64,000 nucleotides of DNA from Branchiostoma floridae (Eukaryota; Chordata; Leptocardii; Amphioxiformes; Branchiostomatidae), in assembly GCF_000003815.2 (NCBI RefSeq), contig NC_049981.1:7912578-7976577 (forward strand). The letters run 5' to 3'. Below the pieces are notes generated by a model that had not been told where the DNA came from, made no database searches, and worked only from the letters and a program-made list of their open reading frames with translations. Made by a program: the position numbers and the translations under genes. This document shows positions 12,801 to 47,905 of the stretch, piece after piece. Positions within the stretch are counted from its first letter, which is position 1. Each line of letters starts with the position of its first letter.

Positions 12801-15800
12801 TTAGTTTATTTTGTTGATCATCAGTTTTGAGAAGAATCATCATGTTCAACTGAATTGTAAAATCAACATGAAAACTGTATCTCAAGGTCAACTACATGTA
12901 GTCTTCACACCTTGTTACATACAGTATCAGGGAATGAATACTGATTAGATTTTTTTATCTTGGCTGTTTGCTGAAGTATTGCTGGAAGTGTGAGTTTTTC
13001 AGCTTGTATGATGGCATTTCAGTACCATGGAAAGATTCATCATAAATCATCATTCATCATTCCAGATTGTTTTTCATGCTGGAAGTTTTGCTTAAAAAAT
13101 GCCCAGAACTAAGAGAATACATTGCCGTGGCCTCAGCCATTAAATCCAAAATAATACTAATTACATTGATTTATGCATGACCCACTGAGGATGCATACTT
13201 TAAACCAGGTTACCAAATTTATGGCAAAAGCGTGACTGCTTGCTGAATGTTTGCTACGAAATGTCCGCAAACCAAGAATATGAATTGCTATGGCCTTTGC
13301 CATTAACTCCAAAATAATTATACTTATTACAAATTGTTCTATATGATTCACTGACAGCCCATGCTCTTATGACAGCTAGACATTCAGTTCAAATTTATCT
13401 AGATTACAAAGCTTTTGACCTACTGACAATGTATAATTTAGTCAGGTTACCAACTTTATGGGAATCATGTGGCTGCGCCACCACCTTGAGCCAAAAGTTA
13501 CCGAAGGTTTGGTAAGAAGCAATTGTAAAAATGTATAACAAAATAACCTGACCCACTGACAATAATTTATTTAATGCAAATTTTACCCCAGGTTGCCAAC
13601 TTGATAAAAATTGAGTAGACTACCTTGAGCCAAGAGGATACAACATTTCTTAGCAAAAGTTCACAGAACCCCAAAAAATATACTGGTGTCCAAATGAACT
13701 GCCCTAATGACCAATTGTTACGTATGACCCACTGACAGTGCATACTTTCCACCAGGTTACCAACTTCATGGGAATTGAGTGGATGCGTCGTCACCTCGAG
13801 CCAAAGGGTTACAACGTCCACACCATCTCCTTCAAGGACCCGAACCCCATGCACATCGATGCCACCTTCAACATCATCGGTCCGGGGTTGGTCCTCTCCA
13901 ACCCTGACCGACCCTGCCACCAGATCGACATGTTCAAGAAGGCCGGATGGACGATTGTCCACCCTCCCACACCGGAAATGCCGGATGGTAAGTGATATTG
14001 CTTATGTGGGCCACTTAAGCTTAATTTATCATGTGGCAAAAAAGTTGGAGATGGGATGAAGAAAAAGTGTATCTTTTGACAAAAAAGTTTTTTTAGGCTA
14101 CCAGGATTTAAGGTAATTTGCATGACCTGGTATGGCAACAACAGATGCACCTACGCTGTGATTTGGAGCCCCTATACTGTGATTTGGACCCCTGCACTGT
14201 GCTACTTTCTTGTTGTCTTGTAACAAAGATAAAAACAAATGTTGGCTTTCGTGTAATTTTACTAAATTTGTCCCTCAAAATGCAGGAAATAGTGTTTTCT
14301 AAATTCCAAGACCCCCTACAATGCTCACACCTACCTAGTACTGGCACAGCTTACCACATAGCTTTTTTAAGTTGTACAATTTGTCTTGTACATTTTGATG
14401 GAATAGCCAAGTATTTTCCCTGTAATTTCAGAAATTCTGTTATGGTTTTATAAAGCTTATTCAGCCCTTCCATCCTACATGTACTAGGCAGAAAATAGCT
14501 GCGCAATTACAGCCACCAAATGGTGATCGGATATGCGAAATTACTGTAATGGTAATGGTGCTTCACATGCCTAAATCGACATTTAATGAAACAGAACACC
14601 TCAGATACTTACTGTAAACCCATCTACATTTTCGAGGGGACTTGATGTTCAGGTAAAAGAGGAAAGAATATTTTAGCTTTTTTCGAAGTTGTAACAATAT
14701 GCAATGCAAATGCATATCCACTGCAATATAAAATGTGTAAATAAGACGATAGAAAACATTTAAACTTTTGCAGTTAATACTAAATTTAGTGAATTCTGAC
14801 AGTCAATTACAGGTTTAACAAATAATACCATGACAAATGGTGGTACATTTCACCAATGAGAGAGTGGTTGCATGTTTGTCATATATCATTTGCATAATGT
14901 TTTTATTTTGCATTTCTACATTTTGATGGAGGTAGTTGGGGCTCTGGAATCTGTTTGTTAAATCAAGGTGCCAGTTACAACAAATCTATCCATTGGTTGG
15001 TTGATCCATTAATAGATTTACCACACAATTTAGCCATTGTTTGATGGATTGATTGATGGATTGATTGATGGATTGATTGATTGATTGATTGATTGATGAT
15101 CCCCAGGCCATCCCCTGTGGATGTCGTCCAAGTGGCTGTCCATGAATGTGCTGATGATCGATCCAAAGCGTGTCGTGTGTGACAGCAACGAAGTCGCCAC
15201 CCAGAAAATGTTCGAGAAGCTTGGCATCAAGACCATCAAGGTAAAGCTCGGTGGATGTGTGATGTATAGTGCCCTCTGGTGTCTTTTCTCATTACTGCAG
15301 GGAATTTTCCTCTCAAGCAACATTTCACTATTCAAACTCTCTATAGTTGTGGCTCTAATGTAAACGCACATTTTCACAGGAACTTGTTTTATGATGGGAT
15401 GAAAAGTAGGATTTTACAGAATTTTAGATTCGCTATTGAAACAATTCTGTTTTACAGCAGTAATACAATGGAGGCATAGGTGTGACATCTTGATTTGGCA
15501 TTGGAGATTTCGAGGTCACTGACAGCTGCCTAAAGAAGAGGCCATTGCTGTTAAATGCACGCGTTCAGTATATCACTTCAAATAGGTTGATCAATGGTAC
15601 ATTATTTTGCATTATTCGGTATGTGCCCGTAATACACATTTTTACGTATTACATTTATTTTGTGGCCTGTCAGTTAGTAAGGGAGTGTTTCCCTGTACAT
15701 TAGAGGAGACTTGTCTTACATGTACATAGCCTCCTAGTGACATTTCAAAATACTGCAAGCGACAGGTGTAATTTTTGCAGGTGAACCTTCAATGCTGGGA

Positions 15801-16252
15801 GGTAGCATAGCATTTCTGAGTACTGCAATAACATGTATATTTTCATAGGTAAATCTTTGTCATGCCATCTCACTGGGAGGTTAGTTCTAATAGCTTACAT
15901 GTGCCCCTTAGCGACATTTCCTTGTACTGCAAGTAACTGGTGTATGTTGTCACAGGTGGACCTTTGTCATGCCAACTCACTGGAAGGTAGCTTAGCTTAC
16001 ATATGCCCCCTAGCGACATTTCCCTGTACTGCAAGTAACTGGGGTATATTTTCACAGGTGAACCGTCGTCATGCCAACTCCCTGGGAGGTAGCTTAGCTT
16101 ACATAGGCCCCCTAGCAATATTTCCTTGTACTGCAAGTAACTGGTGTATATTTTCACAGGTGAACCTTCGTCATGCCAACTCCCTGGGGGGCGGCTTCCA
16201 TTGCTGGACGTGCGACGTTCGCCGCCGTGGTGGTTTGGAGTCGTACCTGTGA
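775..16252 (+). CDS. GATM: Glycine amidinotransferase (AGAT), mitochondrial, 8 coding exons
   Basis: Transfers the amidino group of arginine to glycine, giving ornithine and guanidinoacetate, the first step of creatine synthesis; the vertebrate enzyme sits in the mitochondrial intermembrane space (established). Coding exons: 775-849, 6544-6768, 8925-9120, 9603-9867, 12026-12163, 13756-13987, 15107-15240, 16160-16252. Phases at the junctions are 0,0,1,0,0,1,0 and all join correctly. The reading matches vertebrate AGAT almost throughout, e.g. [49 protein letters not shown] and [15 protein letters not shown]. The catalytic triad is present as Asp258 (CFDAADF), His308 (PMHIDA) and Cys412 (FHCW) in the reconstructed numbering. 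Exon 4 holds a 100-N gap and one missing base, so the assembled sequence cannot be translated straight through. Reconstructed length is about 427 aa against 423 in human. Identity is near certain; the first exon is inferred. Confidence 0.95.
3180..3530. mobile_element. MITE family A (CAGGGCTC ends), copy 1
   Basis: Inverted ends CAGGGCTCAAAATAC and its complement at 3516-3530. The inside has several GTGCAGGTAA / TTACCTGCAC inverted motifs. It is flanked on both sides by AATGG (3175-3179 and 3531-3535), a possible 5-bp target duplication. Full-length relatives lie at 7914, 12262 and 51789. No ORF; non-autonomous, superfamily not assigned. Confidence 0.8.
5595..6017. other. Assembly gap (423 N)
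   Basis: Run of N inside GATM intron 1. Any open frame drawn through it is meaningless. Confidence 0.99.
6544..6768 (+). CDS. GATM: GATM coding exon 2
   Basis: The acceptor is a pyrimidine tract ending TTTTTCCGCAG. The exon reads [20 protein letters not shown], where QSTQ matches the end of the human presequence region, then a charged linker, then [20 protein letters not shown]. It ends VEVK|GTCAGA in phase 0. The frame stays open upstream to an ATG at 6457, but that part lies before the acceptor and has no similarity to AGAT. Confidence 0.93.
6811..7340 (-). mobile_element. LINE 3' fragment (non-LTR reverse transcriptase tail)
   Basis: On the minus strand the frame reads [20 protein letters not shown] (7131-7190), the WNSLP..I...S....FK pattern at the C-terminus of Jockey/CR1/L2-type reverse transcriptases. 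The 3' side ends in ACCTGGGTTAAATAAAG and an AAAC-repeat tail (6811-6850). It is 5'-truncated in GATM intron 2, and the left limit of similarity is uncertain. Confidence 0.6.
7914..8244. mobile_element. MITE family A, copy 2
   Basis: Ends CAGGGCTCGAAATAC and GTATTTCGAGCCCTG are exact inverted repeats. The body aligns by eye with the copy at 3180 over its whole length. No clear target duplication. Lies in GATM intron 2. Confidence 0.8.
8925..9120 (+). CDS. GATM: GATM coding exon 3
   Basis: The acceptor is TTTCACCTGTTTCCAG. The exon reads [20 protein letters not shown], then a helix with [20 protein letters not shown], then TPWFESP. It ends CCA G|GTAAAG in phase 1. It has the AGAT pattern up to the TP.FES block. 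Confidence 0.95.
9603..9867 (+). CDS. GATM: GATM coding exon 4, broken by an N gap and a 1-base deletion
   Basis: Begins with LYASMPRDI after a TTTTCCCAG acceptor and ends [20 protein letters not shown] in phase 0. The family sequence after MPRDIL is IVVGDEII. Here that block is present but one frame off, so one base is missing around 9632-9636. The N run 9659-9758 sits where family alignment predicts only about 25 coding bases (EAPMAWRSR), so 100 N is probably a nominal gap size. With +1 base and a 25-base gap both exon phases fit. The likely cause is assembly error at a contig end rather than a real mutation. Confidence 0.9.
9659..9758. other. Assembly gap (100 N) inside GATM exon 4
   Basis: Exactly 100 N, typical of a nominal unknown-size gap. 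AGAT alignment predicts about 25 missing bases if no intron lies here. Confidence 0.99.
10460..11065. mobile_element. MITE with TACCGTATATTCTCGAATAA ends
   Basis: Terminal inverted repeat of about 29 bp starting TACCGTATATTCTCGAATAA, with one mismatch at the other end (GTGCGTGCTTTATTCGAGAA then TATACGGTA). Inside are three more GGGGTGCGTACTTTATTTGA-like segments. The TA at both edges is compatible with a TA target duplication (Tc1/mariner-like, inferred). No ORF. Lies in GATM intron 4. Confidence 0.75.
11599..11974. mobile_element. Foldback element with CATCCTCCTA ends and a third internal copy
   Basis: Left end CATCCTCCTACGCACGGTCC continues through CCCAACGG to CCTATGGGGCCCTGCTAT. The right end (11921-11974) is its inverted copy, an imperfect terminal repeat of about 57 bp. 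A further inverted copy of the outer 27 bp sits at 11741-11767, so the element carries three ends. No coding content. GATM intron 4. Confidence 0.65.
12026..12163 (+). CDS. GATM: GATM coding exon 5 (catalytic Asp)
   Basis: The 46-codon phase 0/0 exon follows GTGTGTGTACAG. It reads [20 protein letters not shown] and then [20 protein letters not shown], which carries the catalytic Asp, and ends AQRSQ|GTACAC. A TTTG microsatellite starts just inside the following intron. Confidence 0.96.
12170..12222. repeat. TTTG microsatellite
   Basis: Interrupted tandem TTTG units beginning 7 bases inside the intron after GATM exon 5. Confidence 0.9.
12262..12620. mobile_element. MITE family A, copy 3, with a nested insertion
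   Basis: Same ends and body as the copies at 3180 and 7914. It carries an extra piece at about 12470-12535 that starts with an AG microsatellite and continues ACTTTATTTGTCCATTAGC. That piece is absent from the other copies, so it entered later. Confidence 0.75.
13040..13755 (+). repeat. Degenerate tandem array of the GATM exon 6 acceptor region
   Basis: Three copies of the intron end plus first codons of exon 6 precede the true exon: junction-like points at 13209, 13446 and 13592, then the real one at 13756. Each follows a version of GACCCACTGACA. The copy at 13446 still reads [17 protein letters not shown]. The copies at 13209 and 13592 hit stops (TGA, TAG). Confidence 0.85.
13756..13987 (+). 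CDS. GATM: GATM coding exon 6 (catalytic His)
   Basis: After TACTTTCCACCAG the exon reads [20 protein letters not shown], then [20 protein letters not shown] with the catalytic His, then [20 protein letters not shown] and PPTPEMPD. It ends GAT G|GTAAGT in phase 1. Three degraded copies of its acceptor and first codons lie in the intron just upstream (see findings). Confidence 0.97.
15045..15100. repeat. ATTG/ATGG microsatellite abutting GATM exon 7
   Basis: Tandem TTGATTGA and TTGATGGA units run to six bases before the acceptor AG at 15105-15106. Confidence 0.9.
15107..15240 (+). CDS. GATM: GATM coding exon 7
   Basis: Reads [20 protein letters not shown], then [17 protein letters not shown], ending AAG|GTAAAG in phase 0. 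The acceptor GATCCCCAG is preceded directly by a TTGATTGA/TTGATGGA tandem repeat, so there is no ordinary C-rich pyrimidine tract. Confidence 0.95.
15690..16192 (+). repeat. 102-bp tandem array copying the GATM terminal-exon acceptor
   Basis: Units contain CATTTCC..GTACTGCAAGTAAC, a pyrimidine tract, CACAG and the start of the last exon. Junction-like points fall at 15781, 15849, 15956, 16058 and 16160 (true), with spacings 68, 107, 102 and 102. The last three units lie in one uninterrupted reading frame with the true exon. Confidence 0.93.
16160..16252 (+). CDS. GATM: GATM terminal coding exon (catalytic Cys)
   Basis: After TATATTTTCACAG the exon reads [20 protein letters not shown] and then [10 protein letters not shown] with stop TGA at 16250-16252. 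It contains the nucleophilic Cys of the amidinotransferase fold. The acceptor and the first ~30 coding bases recur in four tandem decoys upstream, at 15781, 15849, 15956 and 16058. Confidence 0.97.
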
Positions 16253-21393: not shown

Positions 21394-21639
21394 TGCTGCT
21401 TTCTAAATTTAATATGTGTTTTGTTGACTTTCTAATTGGAAAATCATGCAAAATGTACATGTGTGACTAAAAAGATAACAAAACACACAAAGCGTAAAAA
21501 GATTTTTTCAATCAATAAAATTCATTGAATGTGACTGTAACTGGAAAAATGTGCAAAAACAAAAAAATTATACCACCCAATAAACTACTAGGCTTTTTGG
21601 CCTCATCACCTGGAATGTCTGTCAGTTACAATCCCTGTT

Positions 21640-23102: not shown

Positions 23103-23137
23103 AATGTCATGGAGGCTGTGTAAACCTAACCTACACC

Positions 23138-29800: not shown

Positions 29801-32800
29801 NNNGGTTTGAAACATATTAGACAGAACTGGACCCTGTAATAAGAGTTACAGAATTGTACATGGAACGTTGAAAGAATACGTTTCAATAAGGATCTTGTAT
29901 CCAATAAAGACCTTTACAAAACCTCTTATACATATATATATATATGTGTGTGTAAAGACATTTTCCTGTGGATTTATTATGACCTCAATTATGTAATCTG
30001 AATCCTATTTTGTTTGCCTCTTACCTCAGAACTTCAATGAAAAGTGGCTGCCAGGAGGGCTTTATCATGAATAAACAAAGGCTCAAGCAAAGTTCCAGTT
30101 GGGCCATGTTCATTTGATTATATGAATGACATCCTCTGACAACTCCAAAAAAGATGCGAGCAGGCGAATAAAAAAAAGTTTGGCAAAAAAAGTTGCCTTC
30201 AGTATGAAAATGGTCAAAAAGGTAGAACATACAAATTCTCAAGTTTCCACAGACAATCAGGTCCGGCCCTGTACCTGATCCTCTGGACCTGAACGGGACC
30301 TATACCTGAATTTTCTGTAATAGTACCCACCCCTACCTTTTTTTTCTGACCTTTACTATCTTAATCTTTCACTTTAGATTTATTTTCGCATTCTATGGTA
30401 TTAGTTATCTGTTTTCTAATCCTTTTTTCTTTTAATCTATGGCATATATGTGCTCATTTTAAAGCTGCTTTGCACAATTTATTATGTGGTCAAAAACTTT
30501 TTTTTTTTGGAAACGGCCGAAAGTTGATGCAAGCTCAGATGTCATCCAAATAATCAAATCAACATGGCCTTAGATGTAATCAAATTGACTTATTCTGCCA
30601 GGTCATTCTAAGGGAATAATGGCTGGGTCACTCAAAATGTCCAGAAGTAGAGTTGTAGAGATTTAGTTGTTTTGGCAAAAGGGAAACTTACCCAGATCGT
30701 TGTTGCGAGTTAGGGAGTGGTCAGCGGAGTCCCGGGGTCCGGGGAACTCGAAGCTGTAGCCAAACTTCAGCACGACCCTGTTCTTTCTCAGCATGTCCGC
30801 GATGGCCATCTCACACCCGTTACCCAAAGAGTGCCGCTGCACAACATTAAAACACAAACAGTTAAAGGGGCCCAGAGCGATTTTTAGAGCATTAAAATTG
30901 GAAATATTCTGGATGAGACAATCAGTACGATATTGACATTTACTTCACCATTCTAGCACATTTGTATCATTATTTCATACTTTCAGCGTTTAAAAGGATG
31001 CACAAACATGTCGGAAACGGACCTACAGATGAGTTAAATCAATCAAGGAGATGGTATACGTACATACCTGATTTGCTATTCTAATTTCTGTCAGTGTTGG
31101 GTGGTTGACCACTGACTCCATTATTTTCTGTAGGGAAAAGACAACAAAATTTCCGTGAATAGTTCATCAGCTTGGTACGTCACTGAATAAAGAGACTCTT
31201 TTTGCACAACCATTGTAAATAATTTGCAAAAGGCTGTCTGTACATATGTAAATACTTTGTTTTGTGACCGCATCTGAACTGTGAGCAGCGACACCTGTCC
31301 TGCAGTACAATGTAAACAGAATTGCCCTGAAGATGGTGACAGACTGTCACCGATACGCTGGTAAGAATAAACCAATGGTTGTGTAAAAAGAGTCTCTTTG
31401 TTCTTTGACAACGAAATTTATCTTTAATTTCTCTACCATGACTTATCTAAACATTGAGGTAAAATTCTTGAATTTTGACAGCCCTTCTGGATGCTTTGCA
31501 AATCTCTTACATGTACCTTTAGCAATAAACTAATTCTACATGACAATTGCCAAAATCACACCAAATAACCTGCTTTTAAGCTTTTCAGACATCTATCAAA
31601 AAGGATCCATCCTAGAGCGGATCAAACCTTACAGACTGACCATACACACACTGTGTTACACCTACTACATGTAGTGAGGCAGTTTACAAAAAAGGACTTT
31701 TACCTTCATTCCATCGCCAGAAATAAAGTTGGACTCGATGTTGAGTCTCTCCAGAGTGGTGTTTTCCTTCAGTCCTTCTGCTAGAGCCTACAGAACAAAA
31801 TACAGTGTGTTACACATAAGGGAGGTAATACCAGCTACACAGATACAGATGCAGAAGCTGGTGTGTTACACATAAGGGTGGTAATACCAGCTACACAGAT
31901 ACAGAAGCTGGTGTGTTACACATAAGGGAGGTAATACCAGCTACACAGATACAGAAGCTGGTGTGTTACACATAAGGGAGGTAATACCAGCTACACAGAT
32001 ACAGAAGCTGGTGTATTACACATAAGGGAGGTAATACCAGCTACACAGATACAGAAGCTGGTGTATTACACATAAGGGTGGTAATACCAGCAACACAGAT
32101 ACAGAAGCTGGTGTGTTACACATAAGGGTGGTAATACCAGCTACACAGATACAGATGCAGAAGCTGGTGTGTTACACATAAGGGAGGTAATACCAGCTAC
32201 ACAGATACAGATGCAGAAGCTGGTGTGTTACACATAAGGGAGGTAATACCAGCTACACAGATACAGATGCAGAAGCTGGTGTGTTACACATAAGGGAGGT
32301 AATACCAGCTACACAGATACAGAAGCTGGTGTGTTACACATAAGGGAGGTAATACCAGCTACACAGATACAGAAGCTGGTGTGTTACACATAAGGGAGGT
32401 AATACCAGCTACACAGATACAGAAGCTGGTGTGTTACACATAAGGGAGGTAATACCAGCTACACAGATACAGATACAGAAGCTGGTGTATTACACATAAG
32501 GGAGGTAATACCAGCTACACAGATACAGATGCAGAAGCTGGTGTATTACACATAAGGGAGGTAATACCAGCTACACAGATACAGATACAGAAGCTGGTGT
32601 GTTACACATAAGGGAGGTAATACCAGCTACACAGATACAGATGCAGAAGCTGGTGTGTTACACATAAGGGAGGTAATACCAGCTACACAGATACAGATAC
32701 AGAAGCTGGTGTGTTACACATAATGGTGGTAATACCAGCTACACAGATACAGAAGCTGGTATATTACACATAAGGGTGGTAATACCAGCTACACAGATAC

Positions 32801-35800
32801 AGATGCAGAAGCTGGTGTGTTACACATAACACTACCACTGGCCGTTACGGTGAAAACGTCCTATAATGGGTGAATGTTGGTGAAACACGGTGAACTACGG
32901 TGAAAATGTGTCACCCGGATTCGCATTGTTCCCATGTAAATATGGAGGGGTGAAAGCGAATCTTGCACCTACGTGACAAAAGAGTAAAACATGGTGAAAT
33001 GAAGGTTTCACCCCTAGTAAAACAAACAGCAATTACGTTATTGTGTGCGTTGTTTCACGAGCGCTAGCGACGTGCCCGGCGCTGTCCAGTCTACAGCACT
33101 GGGACAGAAGACTGCCCGCCCAGTTCCTCAGCGCAAGCCGGGGATTTTTTACGCCCCCTCCGCACGCCGGGCAAATTTTAACGGTTACAGCTCGGCGCTA
33201 TCTGTAACGGCACTGGGACTGAAGACTGCCCGCCTAGTTCCAGGATTTTTTTACGCTTGCGACCGAGTCACATATTTCTGGGTCGGAACCAAAGTTTGAT
33301 TTGCCGCATGCTTGCAAGCACCTCCTTGTTGCAAGTAATTAATTTTTCATTCTGAAATCGAGAGCGCCATGACAGGACTTGTATCTGACAAGGAGACTAA
33401 CCCTCTTTTGTATCGAGAGCTCAGACATCTAAGCGCGTCTAATAAACTTATAAAACACATTTTAAAACATGATAAAACATCGTGTCCGGGCGTTTTACCA
33501 GTCAAATACGGCGCTAAATCGACTCCGGCCGCCATGACGCCCGCTCAGCGTCTGCAAGACGTGCACGTGACCGGAATACGCACCTCTGATTGGTTGATCC
33601 TACGGCTGTAGGGGGTTCCCCACTATGATCTGCGCTCTGATTGGTCGAGCTGCAGAATTCTTTCTTTGCTGCCCCATGATGCCTTGCGCCCACCCGCGCG
33701 TCAAACAAAATTTCTTTGTATGAAAAATGCTACATTTCTACGCACAAAAACGCTATATTCCAATTACATTGCAATATTCTCGTAAAGAAATACACAATTA
33801 CAATAGTCTTTCGAGAAAGTATGCATTTATATCCGCATTTATGGGAGAATTTAAGCTGGGAATTTCAAGATACGGCCACGGAAAATTACGGCTCCCGACA
33901 ACAACAACAACAAAACTTACTCAGAGGATCTAAAAAAGACGTAGAATATATTTCCTAGTGTTGCACATGCAGTAAAACTATGAGTTATTGGAAGATTTTC
34001 CTGCATGGATGATTCGGGCCGGGTAGAAGCTGCATGACCGCCAGCCCAGTCCGGTACCTCATGGTATGGTATGCCCAAGGACATTGTATGCATGCCATGC
34101 TGGTTTTACCGTCATTTTTCGGGAAAAGAAACACTCTGGTAGCAAAACTCCCCACGATGTCACCACGGTTTTCGATTGATTTTTTTTAATAGTGTGGATA
34201 GGGTCTAATACCAACCAACAGCGGTAAAATTTCCCCAGCTTGTGCTGATGAACTGGGCGGGCGTTCTACACTCCCAGCACCGGCTAGATAGCGGCGGGCT
34301 ACCGATGGTATGTTTTTTTGTCTATGGAGTTGCGCGCGCCCGTACCATGACACCTTTCACCGGAGGTGTTAATTTCAGCGGGGTGAAACACGGTGAATTT
34401 TCTATTGTGTTCTGGTGCAAAGTAAACACTTGGCATTTCACCCCATCCTTGCATAATCTACTCAAAATATGTGATAATTGCTCAAAATTAACCCCTTGCA
34501 GAGTAAACATAAAAGGGGTGACTTTGACTCAGAACAATCATAGTACCGATTTTAACCGTACTTTCACTACCATTCACCCATTATAGGACGTTTTCACCGT
34601 AACGGCCAGTGGTAGTGTAAGGGAGGTAATACCAGCTACACAGATACAGAAGCTGGTGTGTTACACATAAGGGTGGTAATACCAGCTACACAGATACAGA
34701 AGCTGGTGTATTACACATAAGGGAGGTAATACCAGCTACACAGATACAGAAGCTGGTGTATTACACATAAGGGTGGTAATACTAGCTACACAGATACAGA
34801 AGCTGGTGTGTTACACATAAGGGTGGTAATACCAGCTACACAGATACAGAAGCTGGTGTGTTACACATAAGGGAGGTAATACCAGCTACACAGATACAGA
34901 AGCTGGTGTGTTACACATAAGGGTGGTAATACCAGCTACACAGATACAGATACAGAAGCTGGTGTGTTACACATAATGGTGGTAATACCAGCTACACAGA
35001 TACAGAAGCTGGTGTATTACACATAAGGGAGGTAATACCAGCTACACAGATACAGAAGCTGGTGTATTACACATAAGGGTGGTAATACTAGCTACACAGA
35101 TACAGAAGCTGGTGTGTTACACATAAGGGAGGTAATACCAGCTACACAGATACAGATGCAGAAGCTGGTGTGTTACACATAAGGGAGGTAATACCAGCTA
35201 CACAGATACAGAAGCTGGTGTGTTACACATANNNNNNNNNNNNNNNNNNNNNNNNNNNNNNNNNNNNNNNNNNNNNNNNNNNNNNNNNNNNNNNNNNNNN
35301 NNNNNNNNNNNNNNNNNNNNNNNNNNNNNNNAGCTACACAGATACAGAAGCTGGTGTGTTACACATAAGTGGTGGTAATACCATGCTACACAGATACAGA
35401 TACAGAAGCTGGTGTGTTACACATAAGTGGTGGTAATACCAGCTACACAGATACAGAAGCTGGTGTATTACACATAAGGGTGGTAATACCAGCTACACAG
35501 ATACAGAAGCTGGTGTGTTACACATAAGGGAGGTAATACCAGCTACACAGATACAGAAGCTGGTGTATTACACATAAGGGTGGTAATACCAGCTACACAG
35601 ATACAGAAGCTGGTGTATTACACATAAAGGTGGTAATACCAGCTACACAGATGCAGAAGCTGGTGTGTTACACATAAGGGAGGTAATACCAGCTACACAG
35701 ATACAGAAGCTGGTGTGTTACACATAAGGGAGGTAATACCAGCTACACAGATGCAGATACAGAAGCTGGTGTGTTACACATAAGGGAGGTAATACCAGCT

Positions 35801-38800
35801 ACACAGATACAGAAGCTGGTGTGTTACACATAAGGGAGGTAATACCAGCTACACAGATGCAGATACAGAAGCTGGTGTGTTACACATAAGGGAGGTAATA
35901 CCAGCTACACAGATACAGAAGCTGGTGTGTTACACATAAGGGAGGTAATACCAGCTACCACTGGTGGGCCCGATAATGTCGAAATAATGTCAATCGGACA
36001 GAAAACCCTCCAAAGACATTCTGATTTTTCCGGATATTTTCGAGACATTTTCCAAGAATGTATTTTCTGGGGTTCGAGAATGTCTTTACAGGGTCTTTTG
36101 GGGAGGGCGTGTGTGTTGTTTTTTCCATTGTTCAGAAAAATGTCTTCCAAATGTCTGGAGAAAAACTGTGAAAACTCGCATGTTAACGAAAATCACGCCC
36201 CCGTTAGTAGCCTGAATACGCTTCGAGCGGCCCGCCTGACTGACTGGCCCAGTCAAAATGGAGGGGCGGCAATTTATTAGCTGGTGACCGCGCACCGCGA
36301 GAGACGTTCCTTTGCGATCGGTGTCCCTACACGGCACCGAGCGATCTGTCCTCATTTCACCTTCCTATTAAACATGTGCGTGATCTGAAGCCACTAGGCC
36401 GTGTAAAATGACCGCCACGGCAGGCAACGGAGCGTTACACAAACTTCCAAACTATAAACTGGACTTACAAAGTATTTGATAAAATCCCACTCTCCAGACG
36501 TTATGCCATGTTCGCCCTTTGATGCCACATGCGACAATGTGACTGTCCTTTTCATTTTCATTTTGAATGTTACAAGAATGTCTTTCCAATATCCTTTGTG
36601 GGAGCAGCGCTGATTGCTGAGTTGTCATGCAAAAATATCCGCTGGTGATCGTTTCCTGCATGCCATGCCATGCCTTGCCTAGGCGTCGAAGTTGAGTGAT
36701 ACTCCGAGCGGCTGTCCTTTTTTGCATTTCCGTAAAATATCTGTACAAGTAACTATTAAATCTACCGTGTTCCCGAAATATATTGTCCGTATTTGCCGTT
36801 GGAAATAAAGCTCATTATCTGCGTCCCACTCACCCGGGCGTTATGTCGTCAGGCTGTTTCACACCGTCCCACGGCATGACGATGTGACAGTCCTTTGAAT
36901 GTATTTTGAATGTTACAAGAATGTCTTTCAAATATCTTGTCTCTTCTCTTTATTTTGGTACAATATATGACATTCAACAGTCAAGTTGACAAACTACTTT
37001 TCCTCGTCAGTCCAGCGCCGCACGGCACTCATACGGCGTGGACAAAGCCGCGCTGCTCTCAGGCGTGGACAACAAGTGTTACGTACAGTCAGGCAAAAAA
37101 AAACATTGCTTTTAATCAAATCGAAGACTAAGTTACTCATATTCAAGTTCTCACGCATAATATCACCGTTGAAAATAAAATCAGGTTAATATTCTTGCTG
37201 AGAACCTTTTCGCCGTCACTTCTGAAACAACATCAGACACGCCGATCGACACAAAGGCGGGAAAAGCGGAGATGGTTGCTATAGGACCGGCGGTTGCTAG
37301 GACGTGATTGGCAGCGGGCTTGAGTCTACCTCACGTGCGCTAGCGCCAGGAATATCAGTAAATTGAGTAATGCGATAAAGAAAAACATTGTGTATCTGTT
37401 TAAAAATTCTCCACGTAATTATTATCAACGTATTAATTTCACGTTTCTGAAAAATATAAACGTCTTATGTTTGATTGGCAATTTATAGGATTTAAAAAAA
37501 ATATTTCAAGGGCTAATATCACCCATCTCACGTTCTAGTGGCGTCCGTGCTAAGTTTTTTTTTTAGCGTTTCTATGAGAGTTGTTATCAGAGGAGTGGCC
37601 GGCCGTGTAGAGGGGAAACATATCATTAACATTTGCGTGGACTGACTCAGGCCCCAGGCCAGTTTCCCGTTGTTGTTTTTTGCCAAATTCTACAATCCCG
37701 GTACCCCCATATGAAGGCTTGGTGGGGGCTAGACAATTCCCGTTGCCGGTATGTTAGAACCATTTCCAACGGTCAGAATCGTGGGGCATGCAATCTTCAC
37801 GACCTTCTTCTAGGGTCTTCTAGCGCTAATTCGCAAACATGTTCTAACCAGTGTCATGCATAGGAAGACAAAAACAAAGCAACTTGTTTTGATAAGACCA
37901 AGGACTGCTTTGACCTTCTTTGTTGTGCAAATACTTTTCGACATTCATCATTGTCTCCCGTGCCTGGCTCAGTGACTGAAGTATCTATGTACATGCAAGG
38001 ACTTGGTACATGTAACAGCCTCTTCATTCAGATCATTTAAAAAATACTAGTATTTTGTTCAATACGAACTTCAATCGGTGGGCAACAATTCCATATACGA
38101 TGTACGTCTAAAACAGAGTTTTTTTTTCCCGGTACCCTTCGAGTTTTCTTCACTGTACGCCGTGGTAGCAAGAAAGTTGAAAAGAGGCCTGAATTGTCAT
38201 TTGTCTTCTAAATGATGCACGAACTACTCGTATTCGCTATCGTAAATTTGTAAGAAAACTGTTTGAAAACTAAGAAAACAATTCGTAGATTTGTCCGAAA
38301 CCTGTTCAGAAACCAAGAAAAAGTGTTATTTTTTTTTAATATCTCTTAATGCGAATTACGATCGAACAAAAATTTCTATATTCGCTCCATGATTTACGAA
38401 TTCAAGTCAAAGTGACCTTTGGTCTGACCGGATTTCTTGTTTTGGCTTGGGATCCGAAGAAGAGGAAAGTCAACCATCGTCGTATTTCCATCTTGTAGAC
38501 AATGGGGCCCGCGGTTGTGACTATGCATGACAATAACCAAGATGGATGTCACAACAAGACAATTTCACAGACTTTTGACAGTTTATACATGACCTTGCAG
38601 TTAATACGAAGATTTAGATATCATATCGACATTTTAAAACCAAACGTCGAAAAAATCGCGTGCTTATTTTCATTCTCAAATATCTAATTAAACAAGGCCA
38701 AGATTACAAGTACAATACACACCTCTTGGTCTGCCTCTAGATTTGCGTCTAGAAATGTTTCAAGTGTGGAACAAACGCCAAATCCAGATCCATTGTTTCA

Positions 38801-41800: not shown

Positions 41801-44800
41801 CGCGGCATTACGGCATCACTGGGCGCTTGGGGGCAGGCACAAAGCAAAAAGTACTTGTCTTTCACAGAGGGCGGGGAGCAATTAATTATCAGGAAGACGC
41901 TAACGACTTAATGAGTACTTATTGTTCTAAATAATGGATGGTCTCCGAGGGGAGTCCCTTCCATACGTGTTGAGAGAGGATGTAAACAAAATGTCTTTCA
42001 CGGGTTAAAAATATGTAGTTGAGTTTTTAAAATGTCTCCTTCGGGTTCTCCCGTTTTGGAATGTCTTTGGAGGGTCTTCTGTCCGATAGACATTTTTTCG
42101 ACATTATAGGCCCCACCAGTGTACACAGATGCAGATACAGAAGCTGGTGTGTTACACATAAGGGAGGTAATACCAGCTACACAGATACAGAAGCTGGTGT
42201 GTTACACATAAGGGTGGTAATACCAGCTACACAGATACAGAAGCTGGTGTGTTACACATAAGGGAGGTAATACCAGCTACACAGATACAGAAGCTGGTGT
42301 GTTACACATAAGGGAGGTAATACCAGCTACACAGATGCAGATACAGAAGCTGGTGTGTTACACATAAGGGAGGTAATACCAGCTACACAGATACAGAAGC
42401 TGGTGTGTTACACATAAGGGAGGTAATACCAGCTACACAGATGCAGATACAGAAGCTGGTGTGTTACACATAAGGGAGGTAATACCAGCTACACAGATAC
42501 AGAAGCTGGTGTGTTACACATAAGGGAGGTAATACCAGCTACACAGATACAGAAGCTGGTGTGTTACACATAAGGGAGGTAATACCAGCTACACAGATAC
42601 AGAAGCTGGTGTGTTACACATAAGGGAGGTAATACCAGCTACACAGATACAGAAGCTGGTGTGTTACACATAAGGGAGGTAATACCAGCTACACAGATGC
42701 AGATACAGAAGCTGGTGTGTTACACCAAGTGGTGGCTATGTCAGCAATACAGATAAAGGGGATGTGTACTGACCAGAGCCACCTTGTCGTTACTACGTGT
42801 GGACGCCATACTGAGGTACTTCAGGTTTGTGTTGTTGGCCAGGGAGCTACAGATATCTCCCAGCGTCGGGATGGCGATGTTCTGTAAACAAACAAGTAAG
42901 AGAATAAACAAGAAATAAGCGAGTAAGTATGTTTGCGGCATGTTGGCCCTGGAGCCGAGGAGCTGGTCTGTGTAGGGACTAGGTAGGTAGGTACATTTTA
43001 CATTTTCAGGTCTACATGTCTATCACTTTTGTAATCATTTCAGAAACTCCATCTTAATAGATCCACTGACCTTAAGAAAAGTAAAACAACCTATAAAGAG
43101 TGCAACAATAATCATAATAAACATATGGAATGAGATTTCTTAATCACCTTGATGGTTAAGGTTGGAGAGAACAAGCCATCATATTAGTGATGACTTTAAA
43201 GACAACTCCATTTCAACATTCCCCAGAGCTTATGAAATGAAAACAACCTTGAAGAAGTGCAACAATAATCTTAAGAAGCATATGGACAGAGGTTTCTTAC
43301 TCACCTTGATGTTGTTAAGGTTCAGGTCAGTGAGATCCGAGTCGTTGTCCTGCAGTTTGGTCAGGCTCTCGTGAGGGTCGGTGGTGTTGGGCGGCTCCGA
43401 CTGGACCTGAGGGTATGCTGTGCACTTCACAACAGCTAGGAGGCGCCGAGGAACACAAACATGATTGTAAGGCATAGAATCTAGTACCACTACAAGTCAA
43501 AGCATAACGCTTCACTGCAGAAACTGTACATGCGATGACTTGCCAGAAATTTTGTATATTGCCATTGTTTGTATACAAATAATCTTAAGTGGGCTTAAAA
43601 AAGGAAAAGTTCAAAATCTTCACAGAAGTCTAATTCTTATCATCTTAAAATACATTTCTTTCTACACAACCAATCTTAACTTCCTCAATGATATTTTGAC
43701 TGCTTTCAGTTGTATTGATGGGGGACATTGTTGTTGAGCCAAGCAGGAATTAGTTTTGTCATTTCTCGTATGGTACAGAGTGGCCAGAAGTGTGACGTAT
43801 ACTGATACTTTAACTAGAGATTCTGGTATTGATTTTGAGGACTTACAAAACGCAATGCTAGACAGGGCTTTATGAAGTAAAATATGTACTAGCCTGGTTC
43901 CGGTCGATAATGTATGTATGTACATGTATGGACAGGAATTGTAATGGACTTTGCTATTCCTAACTGCATGGTAACATTGTCAAGGCCAGAGGGGTGCAGT
44001 CCCCAATGTGCCAGACTCTTGTAATACTTACAGCGGAAACCTTCCTTGTTGGCGATTTCTCCAGAAGCAAGAGAGGCATAGTACTGGTCGTTGGACATGA
44101 GCGTGTGCATCCCAAGGATGGCTGCAAGAAACAAGAGGACAAGTGTACATGTGTGTTCTTCTAACAATCTAGCATAGGTTCAATGAGGAATATTGAATGT
44201 AAAAAAGATACTGATAAAAAAATTTACACCATGAAAAGAACACTGATAACACTAAGTATGAAACAAAAATTAGTGGCAAGGTGTTGTCAGTGATTAAACC
44301 CTCTTTGAATTCTTTTTCTTTTTACAGTCAAACTTTTACATAAGTACCTCTACATGAGGACAGACTGACCATTGATATACAGTCAAATCTGTACAAGTGA
44401 CCACTCGTACATAAGGACCACCTGGCCATTGATATGCAGTCAAACCTGTACAAGTGACCACCCGTACATAAGGACCACCTGGCCATTGATATGCAGTCGA
44501 AACCTGTACAAGTGACCACCTCTACATAAGGACCACCTGGCCAACGTTTTGTAGACCGGTACATGGATAGGTGCAATGAACCTAATGTTGTCTACCTACA
44601 GTATGGTTTACTTTATGGAATAGATAAAGCAGAAGTTACTGACCAGCCAAGTCACACAGCTCTCCGTCAGTGGCTTCCTTCAGTGCCTCCTCCAACTCTG
44701 GGTCCAGGACTGGGTCATCTCCTTCATCCTCATCTTTCACTTCCTTCTTCACAAACGCTTTCCCTGAACAAGGAACATAAAGAAATCTCTTTATGTCATG

Positions 44801-47629
44801 CCTGGGCTGCAAAAACGTTCAATATCGCACAGGTTCGAAAGGCATATCACACGGGCTCCATTTAAATAAATTGAACTGTTTCGAGCGGGCCGAGTGCGGT
44901 GGCATCGAAAGTTCGAATACCGGATTCGGACGTTGGAACATTACTGTCATGCCTGGGCCGCGATAATGTTTGATATAGGACGATCCTTCCCGCGGTCGGG
45001 CTGGGACCGAGGGTGATGCGGAATACACCTTGTTGTGTTCTACATGTATCACACAGGCTTCGAAGTTTTATCACCCTGAGGCTTCCATCGAATAATTCAA
45101 ATGGTTTCTGAGCACGCCGAATCCGGCGTGGTCGAAAATTCGAATACCTGATTCGGACGTTGGAACATTCCTATTGAAACAATTTTTGTTCGTGGGCACC
45201 AAATTTGTTCAACTTCTAGCGCATTTTGCATCAAAACAGGTGATATGGAATACACCGTGTTGTAATCTATATGTACACCTGCTCCAAATTTTCCCCTTGT
45301 GTCTTACTCATCACATTATCAAACCATTACTAATAGAACACTTTCATGTACCCTACAGTAATGTTAATGGCAACAATCTCATTTTCCGGTTGAAAGCATC
45401 AGGATTTGCTGGTTAATTCCTTCATCCCCAGTAGCAATTATTGACCCGAGATGAGCAGAGGCCAAAGAAATGATTCTTTAGCCCTTAAGACTATAGGGCC
45501 TTCAAACACCAGTATAAAGGTGTCTCCAAGATTGCAGTGACAGTAGAGGGATAAGGGTTAAGCTATAGTTAAGGTGGGTATTGAAGAACCTAATTTCATC
45601 ATTGAGTACCTCAAACAAGGCTGTTATGTTTACAGACATTTAGTTGCATAACAAACACTGAATTTTTGGTCAAAGCTGCATTCATCACACCCTTTGTATC
45701 TGATTTCTCGACAAAACCATCCAGCTTTTCACTACATACGGACATACATTTTTGTGATGTTTTGTGATGTTTTTGTGATGTTAGAAGGAGAATTAATTTT
45801 TTTTTGTCAGTGAAGGTGCAGAAATTTGGGTGGAATTCGGTGGCCTCTTCAAACAGCTCTTTTCTTTCGTGATCATAGAAAGAGCAGTTTGACATAAATC
45901 TACATAAATCTATTTATAATAGTAGTAGAAGAACTTTGTTACAATGAGTCAAAGAAATTTCTGAAGGTAGTGGTCATTCCTTCCTGTTCTATTCATGTAA
46001 CTCACTTAGTGATATTAGATCTATGTCAGGCTTTTAGCCAGCCAGGCATGCATCAACTTTTCTTAGAATAACAAGAAATTTGATGCCCCTGGACGCCCTA
46101 TCCTGGGGAGAAAATCCTCTGACAAGCATGAAATTCTGATTGACCAGGCATGCTACCAGGTCAGTCTTCTACTGTGACATCTGTAACAGTATTTTTGCCT
46201 CTTGGGATATCTTAGAATGCACTGTTTTAACTTAAAATCATCAAAAACTCTGCACCATGCAGGGTGGATGCCCCCAGACCCCCCTACAATAGTCACTTAC
46301 CGCGACTCACCAATAAGTTTGGACCCCCTATGATAAAATCCTAGCTAAAAGCCTGATCTATGTGTACAATGATTGAGATCTATTAGATATAGTAATGTAC
46401 CCTTCTTCTCTCCGGTGAACGGAATCAGATCCTCCCGATCCTTGTACTCCCTTGCCGACTTCTCCAGGTACTTAAGAAGATGCTCGCGGTCAAGCTTCCC
46501 TGTCGGTGCCTTCTTCGTCTGGTCATGTTGTCTCAAGCCAACGGGCAACAAGTCATTCTGTAATGCACGTGTCAGAAATAAAACTGTATGAACTGAGACG
46601 GGGGCCGATACTGCACCTTTGACCCTTTGCTGACGTCACACTTCCAGTCCGGATGTGTGACTTAGGTATTGGGTCATTCAACTTGAGAAGGATCAGAGGA
46701 CTGATCGAAAGCTTGTTGGTAAGCACTTTATTTTATATTCGGATATAAAGTTTAAAATTGTAACATAAAACTGTATGAAGTTGAAAGCTTGAATAAAGCT
46801 TGAACTTTATAGAATATTTATAAGTTAGTAGTTTCTTGACCTATCATTTTTCTTCTTTTTTCTTTTCTTTTTCAGTGTTTACAAAATACATCATACATGT
46901 ACGTTTTTACAAACAAGCTATTGTACATTTTTTCACATTAATCAGTCTTCAACAAAAGCATATTTTGGCAATTCAACCAAACTAACAAATACTAGTATAA
47001 AACTATTGTCAGGTCCATATTTTGGGTTAGCCTGGGTGCCATCCTAGTACCTCTTCTGCAGCTCCCATACTTTTTGCTTACCTTGCAATTGGTTAAGCTA
47101 AGGGCACAACCTGCCATACATGCAAATACGTACTATTTACGTGCCAAAACGTGGGCAATCTTTTGGGATCCGTAAGTGGTAAGTTCCGCCTCCGTACAAA
47201 CTCGTAGGGAATCCGACGGATTTGGGCACGCGCAGACACACCGTAGAACTTTACGTGCAGGCAAAACTTTGTGTGCCATCGGGCTGCAGATTCGCCACCC
47301 GTACATCATGTCATGCCAGTACGGGCGACACACTCTTGCCAGTCGTTCCCCACGTTTACAGAAATACGTGGCGGACGTTGCCTCCCAAAAAGACGTATGG
47401 ACAAATTGCACGTACGACGGGTTGTGCCGTCAGCTTTACGTAGGGGAGACTTTGCGAGACTAGGATTCGACCCTCGCTAACTTGGTTATTTAGGACTTAC
47501 ATCAGGGTCAAGCTCTGCATTCAACTCCTCCAACTCCTCTTCTGTCATGGAGGACAGGATGGCCTCTTCATCGATGTCCCTATACTTCTCCAAGTCCTCC
47601 CCCAACCCAAACTTGATCAGTCCTGCCAT
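26757..47629 (-). CDS. TMOD: Tropomodulin, 10 coding exons
   Basis: Caps actin filament pointed ends and binds tropomyosin at its N-terminus (established). Coding exons in order: 47629-47501, 46557-46401, 44763-44644, 44121-44032, 43417-43305, 42881-42774, 31787-31704, 31127-31068, 30836-30692, 26818-26757. Junction phases 0,1,1,1,0,0,0,0,1 all join. Total 355 aa against 359 in human TMOD1. Blocks in order: tropomyosin-binding start (EKYRDIDEEAI..MTEEELEEL), actin-binding segment KDREDLIPFTGEKKG, acidic linker, second tropomyosin-binding/helix ATDGELCDLAAILGMHTLMS, then the leucine-rich-repeat cap (LTDLNLNNIKNIAIPTL, STRSNDKVAL, LERLNIESNFISGDGMK, TLTEIRIANQ, LGNGCEMAIADMLRKNRVVL, KFGYSF). 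No leiomodin-type proline-rich/WH2 extension is present. Vertebrate paralogue assignment (TMOD1-4) is not attempted. Confidence 0.95.
26863..27065. mobile_element. MITE family B (TACTGTAAAT, TTCGCGG), copy 1
   Basis: Ends TACTGTAAAT / ATTTACAGTA, with GCGGTGG and CGCGAACTTAAA motifs in both orientations inside. It ends 45 bases before the acceptor of TMOD exon 10. Second copy at 49771-49956. No ORF. Confidence 0.75.
27359..27796. mobile_element. MITE family C (GGGTGGGTACCGG ends), copy 1
   Basis: Left end AGGGTGGGTACCGGTAC; right end GTACCGTTACCCACCCCTA. Subterminal GGTCCGGACCTGAACCTG. Second full copy at 55306-55706, with fragments at 30257-30336 and about 54296-54332. No ORF. Confidence 0.75.
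29156..29803. other. Assembly gap (648 N)
   Basis: Run of N within TMOD intron 9. Confidence 0.99.
30257..30336. mobile_element. MITE family C fragment
   Basis: CAGGTCCGGCCC..CTGATCCTCTGGACCTGAAC ending GTACCCACCCCTA matches one end of family C. The remainder is absent. Confidence 0.6.
30692..30836 (-). CDS. TMOD: TMOD coding exon 9
   Basis: Reads RHSLGNGCEMAIADMLRKNR, then VVLKFGYSFEFPGPRDSADH and SLTRNNDL, ending CTG G|GTAAGT in phase 1. LGN..EM.I..ML and LKFGY.F match the end of the tropomodulin cap; NNDL directly precedes the basic C-terminal helix in the family. Confidence 0.96.
31068..31127 (-). CDS. TMOD: TMOD coding exon 8
   Basis: Acceptor TTTTCCCTACAG; 20 codons KIMESVVNHPTLTEIRIANQ, then GTATGT. 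Phase 0/0. Too short for ordinary ORF calling but a clear leucine-rich-repeat unit of the family. Confidence 0.95.
31150..31415. mobile_element. Foldback repeat family D (Penelope-related), copy 1
   Basis: Terminal inverted repeat of about 27 bp beginning AAAGAGACTCTTTTTGCAC. The + strand holds CTGAAGA followed by a perfect 7-bp hairpin (31335-31351) and GATA, a decayed hammerhead-like core. A relative lies at 62447-62800, with part of the inside inverted. Sits in the TMOD intron 7 next to exon 8. Confidence 0.7.
31704..31787 (-). CDS. TMOD: TMOD coding exon 7
   Basis: Acceptor TTGTTCTGTAG; 28 codons ALAEGLKENTTLERLNIESN + FISGDGMK, then AAG|GTAAAA. One leucine-rich repeat. The minisatellite that fills intron 6 starts within about 15 bases of this acceptor. 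Confidence 0.96.
31797..32828. repeat. 50-bp minisatellite, segment 1
   Basis: Units ACACAGATACAGAAGCTGGT + GTGTTACACATAAGGGAGGT + AATACCAGCT. Variants carry an extra AGATGC/AGATAC hexamer, GTATT for GTGTT, or GGTGG for GGAGG. Each unit has ACCAGCT...AGCTGGT, able to form a hairpin. Not coding despite short open frames. Continues at 34618 and 42122 after two insertions. Confidence 0.97.
32829..34620. mobile_element. DNA transposon with CACTACCACTGG ends (CACTA-like), non-autonomous
   Basis: The element proper is 32830-34617. A perfect 47-bp terminal inverted repeat starts CACTACCACTGGCCGTTACG. It sits in the 50-bp minisatellite, whose intact unit reads CACATAAGGGAGG. The flanks are CACATAA and TAAGGGAGG, so the target duplication is TAA. 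A CACTA terminus plus 3-bp duplication is the EnSpm/CACTA signature (established). Inside are GGTGAAAC/GTTTCACC subterminal repeats and two short frames (33045-33299 and 33369-33611) that match no transposase I know, so it is probably non-autonomous. Confidence 0.88.
34618..35958. repeat. 50-bp minisatellite, segment 2
   Basis: Same unit as 31797-32828, interrupted by a 100-N gap at 35232-35331. Ends exactly at the second transposon. Confidence 0.97.
35232..35331. other. Assembly gap (100 N) in the minisatellite
   Basis: Exactly 100 N, probably nominal. The array length is therefore a minimum. Confidence 0.99.
35959..42121. mobile_element. 6.2-kb DNA transposon with CACTGGTGGG ends (CACTA-like), no transposase seen
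   Basis: Imperfect terminal inverted repeat of about 65-70 bp: left CACTGGTGGGCCCGATAATG, right complement CACTGGTGGGGCCTATAATG, then both continue to CCCTCCAAAGACATTC. Intact minisatellite reads CCAGCTACACAG; the flanks are CCAGCTAC and TACACAG, so the target duplication is TAC. Internal direct repeats occur (about 36497-36600 with 36838-36945; about 37580-37760 with 40340-40500). Base composition is richer in CpG than the surrounding introns. No frame resembles a DDE transposase, so it is either non-autonomous, intron-split or decayed. Confidence 0.85.
42122..42726. repeat. 50-bp minisatellite, segment 3
   Basis: Continuation of the array to 48 bases before the donor of TMOD exon 6. Removing both insertions joins the three segments into about 3 kb of one array. 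Confidence 0.97.
42774..42881 (-). CDS. TMOD: TMOD coding exon 6
   Basis: Acceptor GTTTACAG; reads NIAIPTLGDICSSLANNTNL, then KYLSMASTRSNDKVAL, ending CTG|GTCAGT. 36 codons, phase 0/0. Matches the NIPIPTL..GTRSND block of tropomodulins. Confidence 0.96.
43085..43322 (-). repeat. Direct duplication of the TMOD exon 5 donor region
   Basis: Segment 43085-43164 repeats 43241-43322 with substitutions. Both share (+ strand) GTGCAACAATAATC and CATATGGA, then TTTCTTA.TCACCTTGATG. The copy contains CAAG|GTGATT where the true junction is CAAG|GTGAGT. Offset 157 bp, in intron 5. Confidence 0.85.
43305..43417 (-). CDS. TMOD: TMOD coding exon 5
   Basis: Phase requires the acceptor AAGTGCACAG at 43418-43420. 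The exon reads YPQVQSEPPNTTDPHESLTK, then LQDNDSDLTDLNLNNIK, ending AAG|GTGAGT in phase 0. An alternative CAG four codons further in would break the frame. It begins the leucine-rich-repeat domain. Its donor end is duplicated 157 bp downstream (see findings). Confidence 0.92.
44032..44121 (-). CDS. TMOD: TMOD coding exon 4
   Basis: Acceptor CTTGCAG; reads AILGMHTLMSNDQYYASLAS, then GEIANKEGFR, ending T|GTAAGT in phase 1. Highly conserved tropomodulin block. Confidence 0.96.
44325..44545. repeat. 57-bp tandem repeat, about 4 copies
   Basis: Units start CAGTCAAACCTGTACAAGTG and contain CATAAGGACCACCTGGCC. Starts at 44325, 44380, 44437 and 44494. The CAGTCAAACCTGTA start resembles ends of Tigger/mariner-type elements, which is only a resemblance. 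TMOD intron 3. Confidence 0.85.
44644..44763 (-). CDS. TMOD: TMOD coding exon 3
   Basis: Acceptor TTGTTCAG; reads GKAFVKKEVKDEDEGDDPVL, then DPELEEALKEATDGELCDLA, ending GCT G|GTCAGT in phase 1. The acidic linker is followed by the second tropomyosin-binding helix. Confidence 0.95.
44790..45170. repeat. Diverged direct repeats in TMOD intron 2
   Basis: TCATGCCTGGGC(T/C)GC occurs at about 44795 and 44948. CGAATACCGGATTCGGACGT at about 44914 recurs with one change at about 45140. The segment is GC- and CpG-rich for an intron. Origin unknown. Confidence 0.6.
45171..46400 (-). other. TMOD intron 2 remainder, nothing recognised
   Basis: AT-rich intron with a small TTTTGTGATG tandem near 45750-45782 and no exon-like segment. 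Confidence 0.5.
46401..46557 (-). CDS. TMOD: TMOD coding exon 2
   Basis: Reads NDLLPVGLRQHDQTKKAPTG, then LKYLEKSAREYKDREDLIPF and TGEKK, ending AAG G|GTACAT in phase 1. It corresponds to the pointed-end actin-binding segment. Confidence 0.96.
46558..47500 (-). other. TMOD intron 1 (between coding exons 1 and 2)
   Basis: Includes GCTGACGTCACACTTCC..CCGGATGTGTGAC (46629-46664), a short inverted pair with a CRE-like TGACGTCA and ETS-like core. It also has a CpG-rich segment at about 47140-47470 unlike the rest of the intron. No exon recognised in either. Confidence 0.45.
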
Positions 47630-47647
47630 GGTTCACTGTGTCTCTAT
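47501..47647 (-). CDS. TMOD: TMOD coding exon 1 with start codon
   Basis: Coding 47629-47501 (43 codons), beginning MAGLIKFGLGEDLEKYRDID and ending ELDPD|GTAAGT, phase 0. An acceptor (CTATGTCCTTACAG) places 18 bases of 5' UTR at 47647-47630, so an upstream non-coding exon must exist. Three tandem copies of acceptor + ATG + ten codons lie upstream. Confidence 0.93.
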
Positions 47648-47905
47648 CTGTAAGGACATAGGTGGAACAGTAATGTCAATCCCAACCCAAACTTGATCAG
47701 TCCTGCCATGGTTTCACTGTGTCTCTTATCTGTAAGGACATAGGTAGAACAGTAACAACAATCCCAACCCAAACTTGATCAGTCCTGCCATGGTTCACTG
47801 TGTCTATCTGTAAGGACATAGGTAGAACAGTAACAACAATCCCAACCCAAACTTGATCAGTCCTGCCATGGTTTCACTGTGTCTCTATCTGTAAGGACAT
47901 AAGCA
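47597..47905 (-). repeat. ~80-bp tandem array copying the TMOD start exon edge
   Basis: Copies of acceptor + leader + ATGGCAGGACTGATCAAG + TTTGGGTTGGG have ATG positions at 47629 (true), 47709, 47791 and 47869 on the minus strand (spacing 80, 82, 78). Each copy keeps CTATGTCCTTACAG. Beyond TTGGG the copies diverge from the true exon. Confidence 0.95.

What the first reader, a model, noticed from the sequence alone, without database searches (positions are those of the whole stretch)
13040..47905. Recurrent small duplications centred on exon-intron junctions in two unrelated genes
Four independent arrays (unit 80-240 bp, different ages) each span a splice junction of GATM or TMOD. Ordinary minisatellites in this window do not. 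Either junction regions are prone to duplication here, or copies at junctions are retained because they are tolerated by the splicing machinery. I know of no named process for this; it may be a general property of this genome.
Basis: inference. Interest (0 to 1): 0.8.

Follow-up and report, generated by a model that had tools for sequence, protein, structure and literature searches.

The report
Duplicated splice junctions, amphioxus 'mirages'
Short stretches of DNA straddling exon edges have been copied several times in two amphioxus genes while the exon itself stayed intact; such copies already have a name in amphioxus, and there is a new, unproven hint that they favour one kind of splice site.

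Summary
Four short duplications span splice junctions: two GATM acceptors (13755|13756, 16159|16160), the TMOD first-coding-exon acceptor (47648|47647) and a TMOD donor (43305|43304); extra copies lie on the intron side. None of 13 other duplication events in the two gene spans spans a junction. 'No named process' is wrong: these are 'mirages', published for amphioxus Adh3, globins, troponin C and PGBD5. The genome is very probably Branchiostoma floridae.

That test counts every copy in introns but each junction once. Counting founding duplications, loci not picked for mirages give 7 of 31 at junctions against 1.7 expected, P=0.0005; four of the seven are in one myosin, and without it 3 of 26 against 1.3, P=0.13.

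Post hoc: spanned junctions are mostly AG|GT, 12 of 58 AG|GT junctions against 4 of 160 others, P=4e-5, with 7 of the 12 in two genes. Verdict: new members of a known kind, plus a testable lead about AG|GT sites.

The parts
13190..13815 (+). GATM acceptor array: three degenerate upstream copies (junctions 13208|9, 13445|6, 13591|2) plus the exon-attached acceptor 13755|13756
   Evidence: sequence; alignment; score 34; copies
13756..13987 (+). GATM exon whose start is duplicated
   Evidence: match to solved GATM (1jdx, E 7e-43)
15717..16196 (+). GATM last-exon acceptor array, four upstream copies (15780|1, 15848|9, 15955|6, 16057|8) plus the exon-attached acceptor 16159|16160; mainly 102 bp
   Evidence: TRF; sequence; score 55
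16160..16252 (+). GATM last coding exon with stop
   Evidence: ORF
47601..47930 (-). TMOD first-coding-exon acceptor array, three upstream copies (47889|8, 47808|7, 47730|29) plus the exon-attached acceptor 47648|47647
   Evidence: TRF; sequence; alignment; score 50
47501..47647 (-). TMOD first coding exon
43030..43340 (-). TMOD donor duplication: exon-attached donor 43305|43304 and one downstream copy 43148|43147
   Evidence: sequence; alignment 75%; score 32
43305..43435 (-). TMOD exon whose end is duplicated

Best explanation
These are amphioxus mirages: short tandem duplications whose founding unit straddled an exon-intron junction. Shown: the extra copies lie on the intron side; the copy joined to the exon body is the intact one; copies have drifted to different degrees; their splice dinucleotides are mostly kept. 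Inferred: they are born and turn over by ordinary minisatellite processes (replication slippage or unequal exchange), which are intense here. A duplication inside an exon is removed by selection; one straddling a junction survives because the spliceosome still uses the exon-attached site and the copies leave with the intron.
For: Position and direction of copies in all four arrays. Local duplications are common: 12% of the window and 20% of GATM/TMOD intron positions; exonic windows carry copies less often than intronic ones, 20 of 617 against 562 of 6178. Published mirages do not disturb splicing by RT-PCR and show length instability (PMC3087553 passages). The same genome has a globin with a 158-bp x4.2 array over an acceptor, a globin with a 157-bp copy of a donor and an Adh3 with arrays at 4 of 4 fetched junctions, as published for BflGb6, BflGb9 and Adh3 (matched by gene family, position and unit length, not by comparing sequences).
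Against: No RNA data were available, so normal splicing of GATM and TMOD is not shown. Pure tolerance should not lift the junction rate above the intronic founder rate, yet founder counts suggest it is lifted (window 4 of 17 against 0.9; unascertained 7 of 31 against 1.69) and unevenly, towards AG|GT junctions. The species is inferred, not given by a tool.
Confidence: 0.65

Rival explanations
1. Junctions, above all AG|GT junctions, gain or keep duplications preferentially: either such sites promote duplication, or copies that are both acceptor and donor are removed by recursive splicing and so persist.
For: 12 of 58 AG|GT junctions carry copies against 4 of 160 others, P=3.6e-5. Unascertained AG|GT junctions: 5 against 0.74 expected from founders, others 3 against 1.27. 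Dual-specific AGGT sites are enriched in human tandem-repeat genes (PMC10809524, abstract and discussion).
Against: Post hoc; the first six acceptors suggested it. 7 of the 12 are in two genes (L034, Adh3), and both unascertained acceptors and four of the five unascertained junctions are in L034. Donors alone P=0.054. The acceptor GT is a good donor match in only 2 of 6 cases. Arrays that span no junction are not rich in AGGT, 9 of 34 against 6.8.
Confidence: 0.25
2. The arrays are kept because they do something, for example regulate splicing or feed intron gain.
For: Decoy dinucleotides kept in 66 of 70 copies, though copies were chosen to cross the junction; intron-gain model in PMC3087553.
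Against: The -2..+2 core is more conserved than its flanks in only 5 of 8 acceptor arrays (6 of 7 donor arrays), and exonic flanks are nearly as conserved; copy numbers and units differ freely.
Confidence: 0.07
3. Assembly artefact, such as haplotypes or reads joined in tandem.
Against: Copies differ by 3-45% and each array has its own unit; the PGBD5 repeats were confirmed by resequencing.
Confidence: 0.03

Closest known systems
Mirages of amphioxus (Adh3, BflGb6, BflGb9, TnC, PGBD5; PMC3087553 and PMC3902484, passages)
   Same: Tandem copies spanning an exon-intron boundary, acceptors or donors, units in the same range, same genome by inference
   Different: New genes (GATM, TMOD, a myosin on C10); some copies far more decayed (55-68%); splicing and instability not tested here
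Dual-specific (AG|GT) splice-site arrays, human UBC (PMC10809524, abstract and discussion)
   Same: Tandem repeats carrying AG|GT; three of the four window junctions are AG|GT
   Different: UBC units are coding; here the copies are intronic, and use of a site in both roles is unproven
Intron gain by tandem genomic duplication of an AGGT segment (PMC3443670, passages)
   Same: Duplicated AGGT sites
   Different: No new intron is seen here; an existing intron is lengthened

Membership tests
amphioxus mirage | Minisatellite-like repeats that include an exon-intron boundary | tested here: met
   Four of four arrays
amphioxus mirage | Occurs in a cephalochordate genome | tested here: met
   Indirect: globin and Adh3 loci of the same genome have arrays like the published ones; no tool names the species
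amphioxus mirage | Regular splicing is not disturbed | not testable with these tools
   No RNA data; reported for other mirages
amphioxus mirage | Copy-number instability | not testable with these tools
   One assembly only
dual-specific (AG|GT) splice-site array | Repeat carries AG|GT at the junction | tested here: inconclusive
   Met for three of four window junctions, not for the TMOD acceptor (AG|AT)
dual-specific (AG|GT) splice-site array | Same site used as donor and as acceptor | not testable with these tools
   Needs RNA or lariat reads; donor-like context good in 2 of 6 mirage acceptors that start with GT
intron gain by tandem genomic duplication | Duplication creates an intron absent in relatives | not tested
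   Intron positions were not compared with other species

The most novel reading that the evidence does not exclude
Amphioxus mirages are arrays of dual-specific AG|GT splice sites. Junctions that read AG|GT gain or keep tandem copies far more often than other junctions, because copies that are both acceptor and donor can be removed stepwise by recursive splicing, or because such sites promote the duplication itself. Fast-turning minisatellites would then be a standing source of recursive splice sites, microexons and new introns.
Probability: 0.3. Interest if true: 0.75.

Novelty: new member of a known kind. Interest (0 to 1): 0.45.

Why it matters
If the AG|GT bias holds, it would be a sequence rule for where mirages form or persist and would tie minisatellite turnover to recursive splicing and intron gain, testable with amphioxus annotation and RNA-seq.

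Tried and rejected
Whole-array random placement: 7 spanning arrays against 5.96, P=0.38; exon-avoiding placement: 7 against 2.0, P=0.002. The first is too generous and the second too strict for long arrays, so a founder-unit test was used, with founder length at 1x, 1.5x and 2x. In one search the margin M changed the expectation only; the observed counts were fixed at 8 bases.

Selection on AG|GT inside copies: the core exceeds the flanks in 5 of 8 acceptor arrays and 6 of 7 donor arrays, but exonic flanks are nearly as conserved and copies were chosen to cross the junction, so no claim is made. AGGT in arrays that span no junction: 9 of 34 against 6.8 expected, no enrichment; in spanning arrays 8 of 9 against 3.6.

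Genome-wide triple TTTCAGGT pattern: 179 hits against 41 for the reversed pattern. The list stops at 100 rows and a few large arrays dominate it; the comparison patterns did not complete, so it is not used. P-loop pattern: 14 hits at four places, too few. The 2002 Adh paper is not held; I saw its entry in a reference list and later papers' descriptions. Huntingtin paper: passages only; tandem repeats are mentioned, nothing on junctions.

Rows dropped: 26 predicted exons were left out (13 pseudo-exons in the L034 array; 11 under score 20 in the three chromosome stretches; 2 more in C2), and 13 of 227 junctions were too near a sequence end. L040 has the same printed peptides as L033 and was kept out of all counts; of its 16 junctions scored (two from an opposite-strand prediction overlapping an exon) one reached exactly the threshold of 22. 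One counted unascertained event (L033 4490-4790) covers both ends of a predicted exon, a whole-exon duplication; without it the unascertained count is 6 of 30. The five Adh3 events were entered by hand.

Full report
What the window is. The window is bases 7,912,578-7,976,577 of contig C3 in a genome of 513.4 Mb in 431 contigs. It holds GATM on the + strand and a tropomodulin gene (TMOD) on the - strand. No tool names the species. The same genome has a globin with a 158-bp unit x4.2 over an acceptor (L031), a globin with a single 157-bp copy of a donor (L027), and an Adh3 gene with arrays at 4 of 4 junctions fetched (L041). These match what is published for B. floridae BflGb6, BflGb9 and Adh3 by family, position and unit length, so I take it to be B. 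floridae; that the assembly size fits is from memory.

The observation. All four junction-spanning duplications exist; positions and spacings are in the observation check. In each the copy attached to the exon body is the intact one and the extra copies lie in the intron. Best local-copy scores of the four 60-base junction windows are 34, 55, 50 and 32 against a maximum of 19 in 747 shuffles. Identity to the exon-attached copy is 94-97% for the TMOD acceptor, 75% for the TMOD donor and 55-68% for the older GATM array. For the GATM last-exon array it is 68-73% over a stretch that runs past the unit into the exon, with 87% matches between units by TRF. Of 17 duplication events in the two gene spans, 13 span no junction.

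It has a name. [quoted passage not shown] I read passages of PMC3087553 and PMC3902484. They report mirages in Adh3, BflGb6, BflGb9, troponin C and PGBD5, normal splicing by RT-PCR, length instability, somatic instability at Adh3, and a model of intron gain; [quoted passage not shown] The 2002 paper itself is not held.

In the window 4 of 29 junctions are covered by a local copy, 3.48 expected by circular shift, P=0.48. For more loci I predicted exons with a small splice-plus-codon scorer trained on GATM, TMOD, myosin and globin exons. On the 14 internal GATM/TMOD exons, which were partly in its training set, it gave 10 exact, 3 with one edge shifted and 1 missed; a shuffled window gave none at score 15 or more, and the real window gave two unsupported predictions at 20 or more, one of them in a minisatellite. 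Pfam was given peptides of 13 of the 19 exons used from the chromosome stretches, as six queries: two gave a family above the curated cut-off (tetraspanin, RRM), three only hits below it (saccharopine dehydrogenase, cadherin, DUF2975), one none. Over 214 testable junctions 12 carry copies (5.6%), against 562 of 6178 intronic windows (9.1%) and 20 of 617 exonic windows (3.2%); outside the window 8 of 185 (4.3%) against 332 of 5012 (6.6%). By the stated rule the excess is refuted.

Why that test misleads. An array with n copies covers n units of intron but a given junction at most once. The fair question is whether the founding unit straddled a junction. With one founding unit per event placed at random but not wholly in exon, the loci not picked for mirages (eight myosin stretches, and stretches of C3, C1 and C2 outside the window; 168 junctions) show 7 of 31 events at junctions against 1.69, P=0.0005, or P=0.017 with founder length doubled. 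The window shows 4 of 17 against 0.9, P=0.01, but was selected for this. Four of the 7 come from one myosin (L034); without it 3 of 26 against 1.27, P=0.13. One of those three is a whole-exon duplication. An excess is likely but clustered and not secure.

The myosin and Adh3. In L034 (C10:21,154,300-21,159,300) four of six predicted junctions carry copies: arrays of 133 bp x2.9, 90 bp x1.9, 50 bp x22 and 40 bp x2.9. TRF puts the first three over a junction and the fourth 22 bases past one; the alignment test covers all four. The 22-copy unit repeats CAG|GTGAGAGTGGAGCAGGTAAAA, the start of the P-loop exon. In Adh3 the two exons in the 2.4 kb fetched have arrays at all four ends, and the intron between them is almost wholly made of them.

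A possible rule. Mirage acceptors tended to be followed by GT: 5 of 6 against 11 of 108 others (noticed after the fact). With Adh3 added, 6 of 16 GT-start acceptors carry copies against 2 of 94 others (P=9e-5), AG-ending donors 6 of 42 against 2 of 66 (P=0.054), and all AG|GT junctions 12 of 58 against 4 of 160 (P=3.6e-5). Without the window, acceptors are 4 of 14 against 1 of 81 (P=0.0014); in the unascertained loci 2 of 9 against 0 of 69 (P=0.012), both in L034. These tests treat junctions as independent, but 7 of the 12 lie in L034 and Adh3. Against founder expectation, unascertained AG|GT junctions show 5 against 0.74 (four in L034) and others 3 against 1.27 (two from the whole-exon duplication). 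AG|GT sites can act as donor or acceptor; a human study reports an 8.4-fold excess of such introns in tandem-repeat genes and argues that these expansions are less harmful because they can be spliced out. It also reports that such sites are rare among annotated splice sites (PMC10809524, abstract and discussion). Copies keep their splice dinucleotides in 66 of 70 cases, with the bias that copies were chosen to cross the junction. Against the rule: post hoc, small numbers, clustering, donor-like context good in only 2 of 6, and no AGGT enrichment in arrays that span no junction. A genome-wide pattern comparison could not be finished.

Mechanism. Shown: place and direction of the copies, integrity of the exon-attached site, mostly intact decoy sites, spread of ages. 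Inferred: birth by slippage or unequal exchange; survival because the copies leave with the intron. Open: whether junctions, above all AG|GT junctions, are more prone or only more tolerant. Tolerance alone should not lift the rate above the intronic founder rate, so an excess at AG|GT, if real, needs a higher birth rate or slower loss.

Verdict. New members of a known kind, with one lead worth a genome-wide test. Papers: passages of PMC3087553, PMC3902484, PMC3443670 and PMC2206037; abstract and discussion of PMC10809524; others only as listings. In searches I saw no genome-wide count of mirages and no paper linking them to AG|GT; that covers the rows listed from an open-licence library only.

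Noticed in passing
window joined to L003-L012, positions 116346-117858, 129022-129530, 147634-147747: In a cadherin-like gene on the - strand several arrays carry ACAGGTG-type units, up to three AG|GT per unit, one at a low-scoring predicted exon; possible further mirages, not counted.
   Followed up: no
31805-32829, 34618-35958, 42132-42703: The same 50-bp minisatellite unit forms three arrays in TMOD introns; one stops 17 bases from the acceptor at 31787.
   Followed up: partly
15806-16252: The GATM last-exon array is one open frame (102 bp = 34 codons per unit), so use of an upstream copy would add about 34 residues per unit without a stop.
   Followed up: no
44346-44543: A 57-bp array x3.5 lies wholly inside a TMOD intron, about 100 bases from a donor; it spans no junction.
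   Followed up: yes
L034:853-3953 (C10:21,154,300-21,159,300): Myosin gene with copies at four of six predicted junctions, one array of 22 units repeating the start of the P-loop exon.
   Followed up: yes
L033:4490-4790 and L040:2960-3200: A myosin exon has a near copy about 172 bases away in both loci, perhaps an alternative exon.
   Followed up: no
L033 (C9:19.88 Mb) and L040 (C11:2.25 Mb): Two myosin stretches on different chromosomes give the same printed exon peptides, a recent duplication or an assembly effect.
   Followed up: no
9659-9758: A run of exactly 100 N inside a GATM exon, probably an assembly gap.
   Followed up: no
G000:C10:2,995,201-3,078,551: Nine places within 84 kb hold triple TTTCAGGT arrays with a 51-base step (listing cut at 100 rows).
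   Followed up: no
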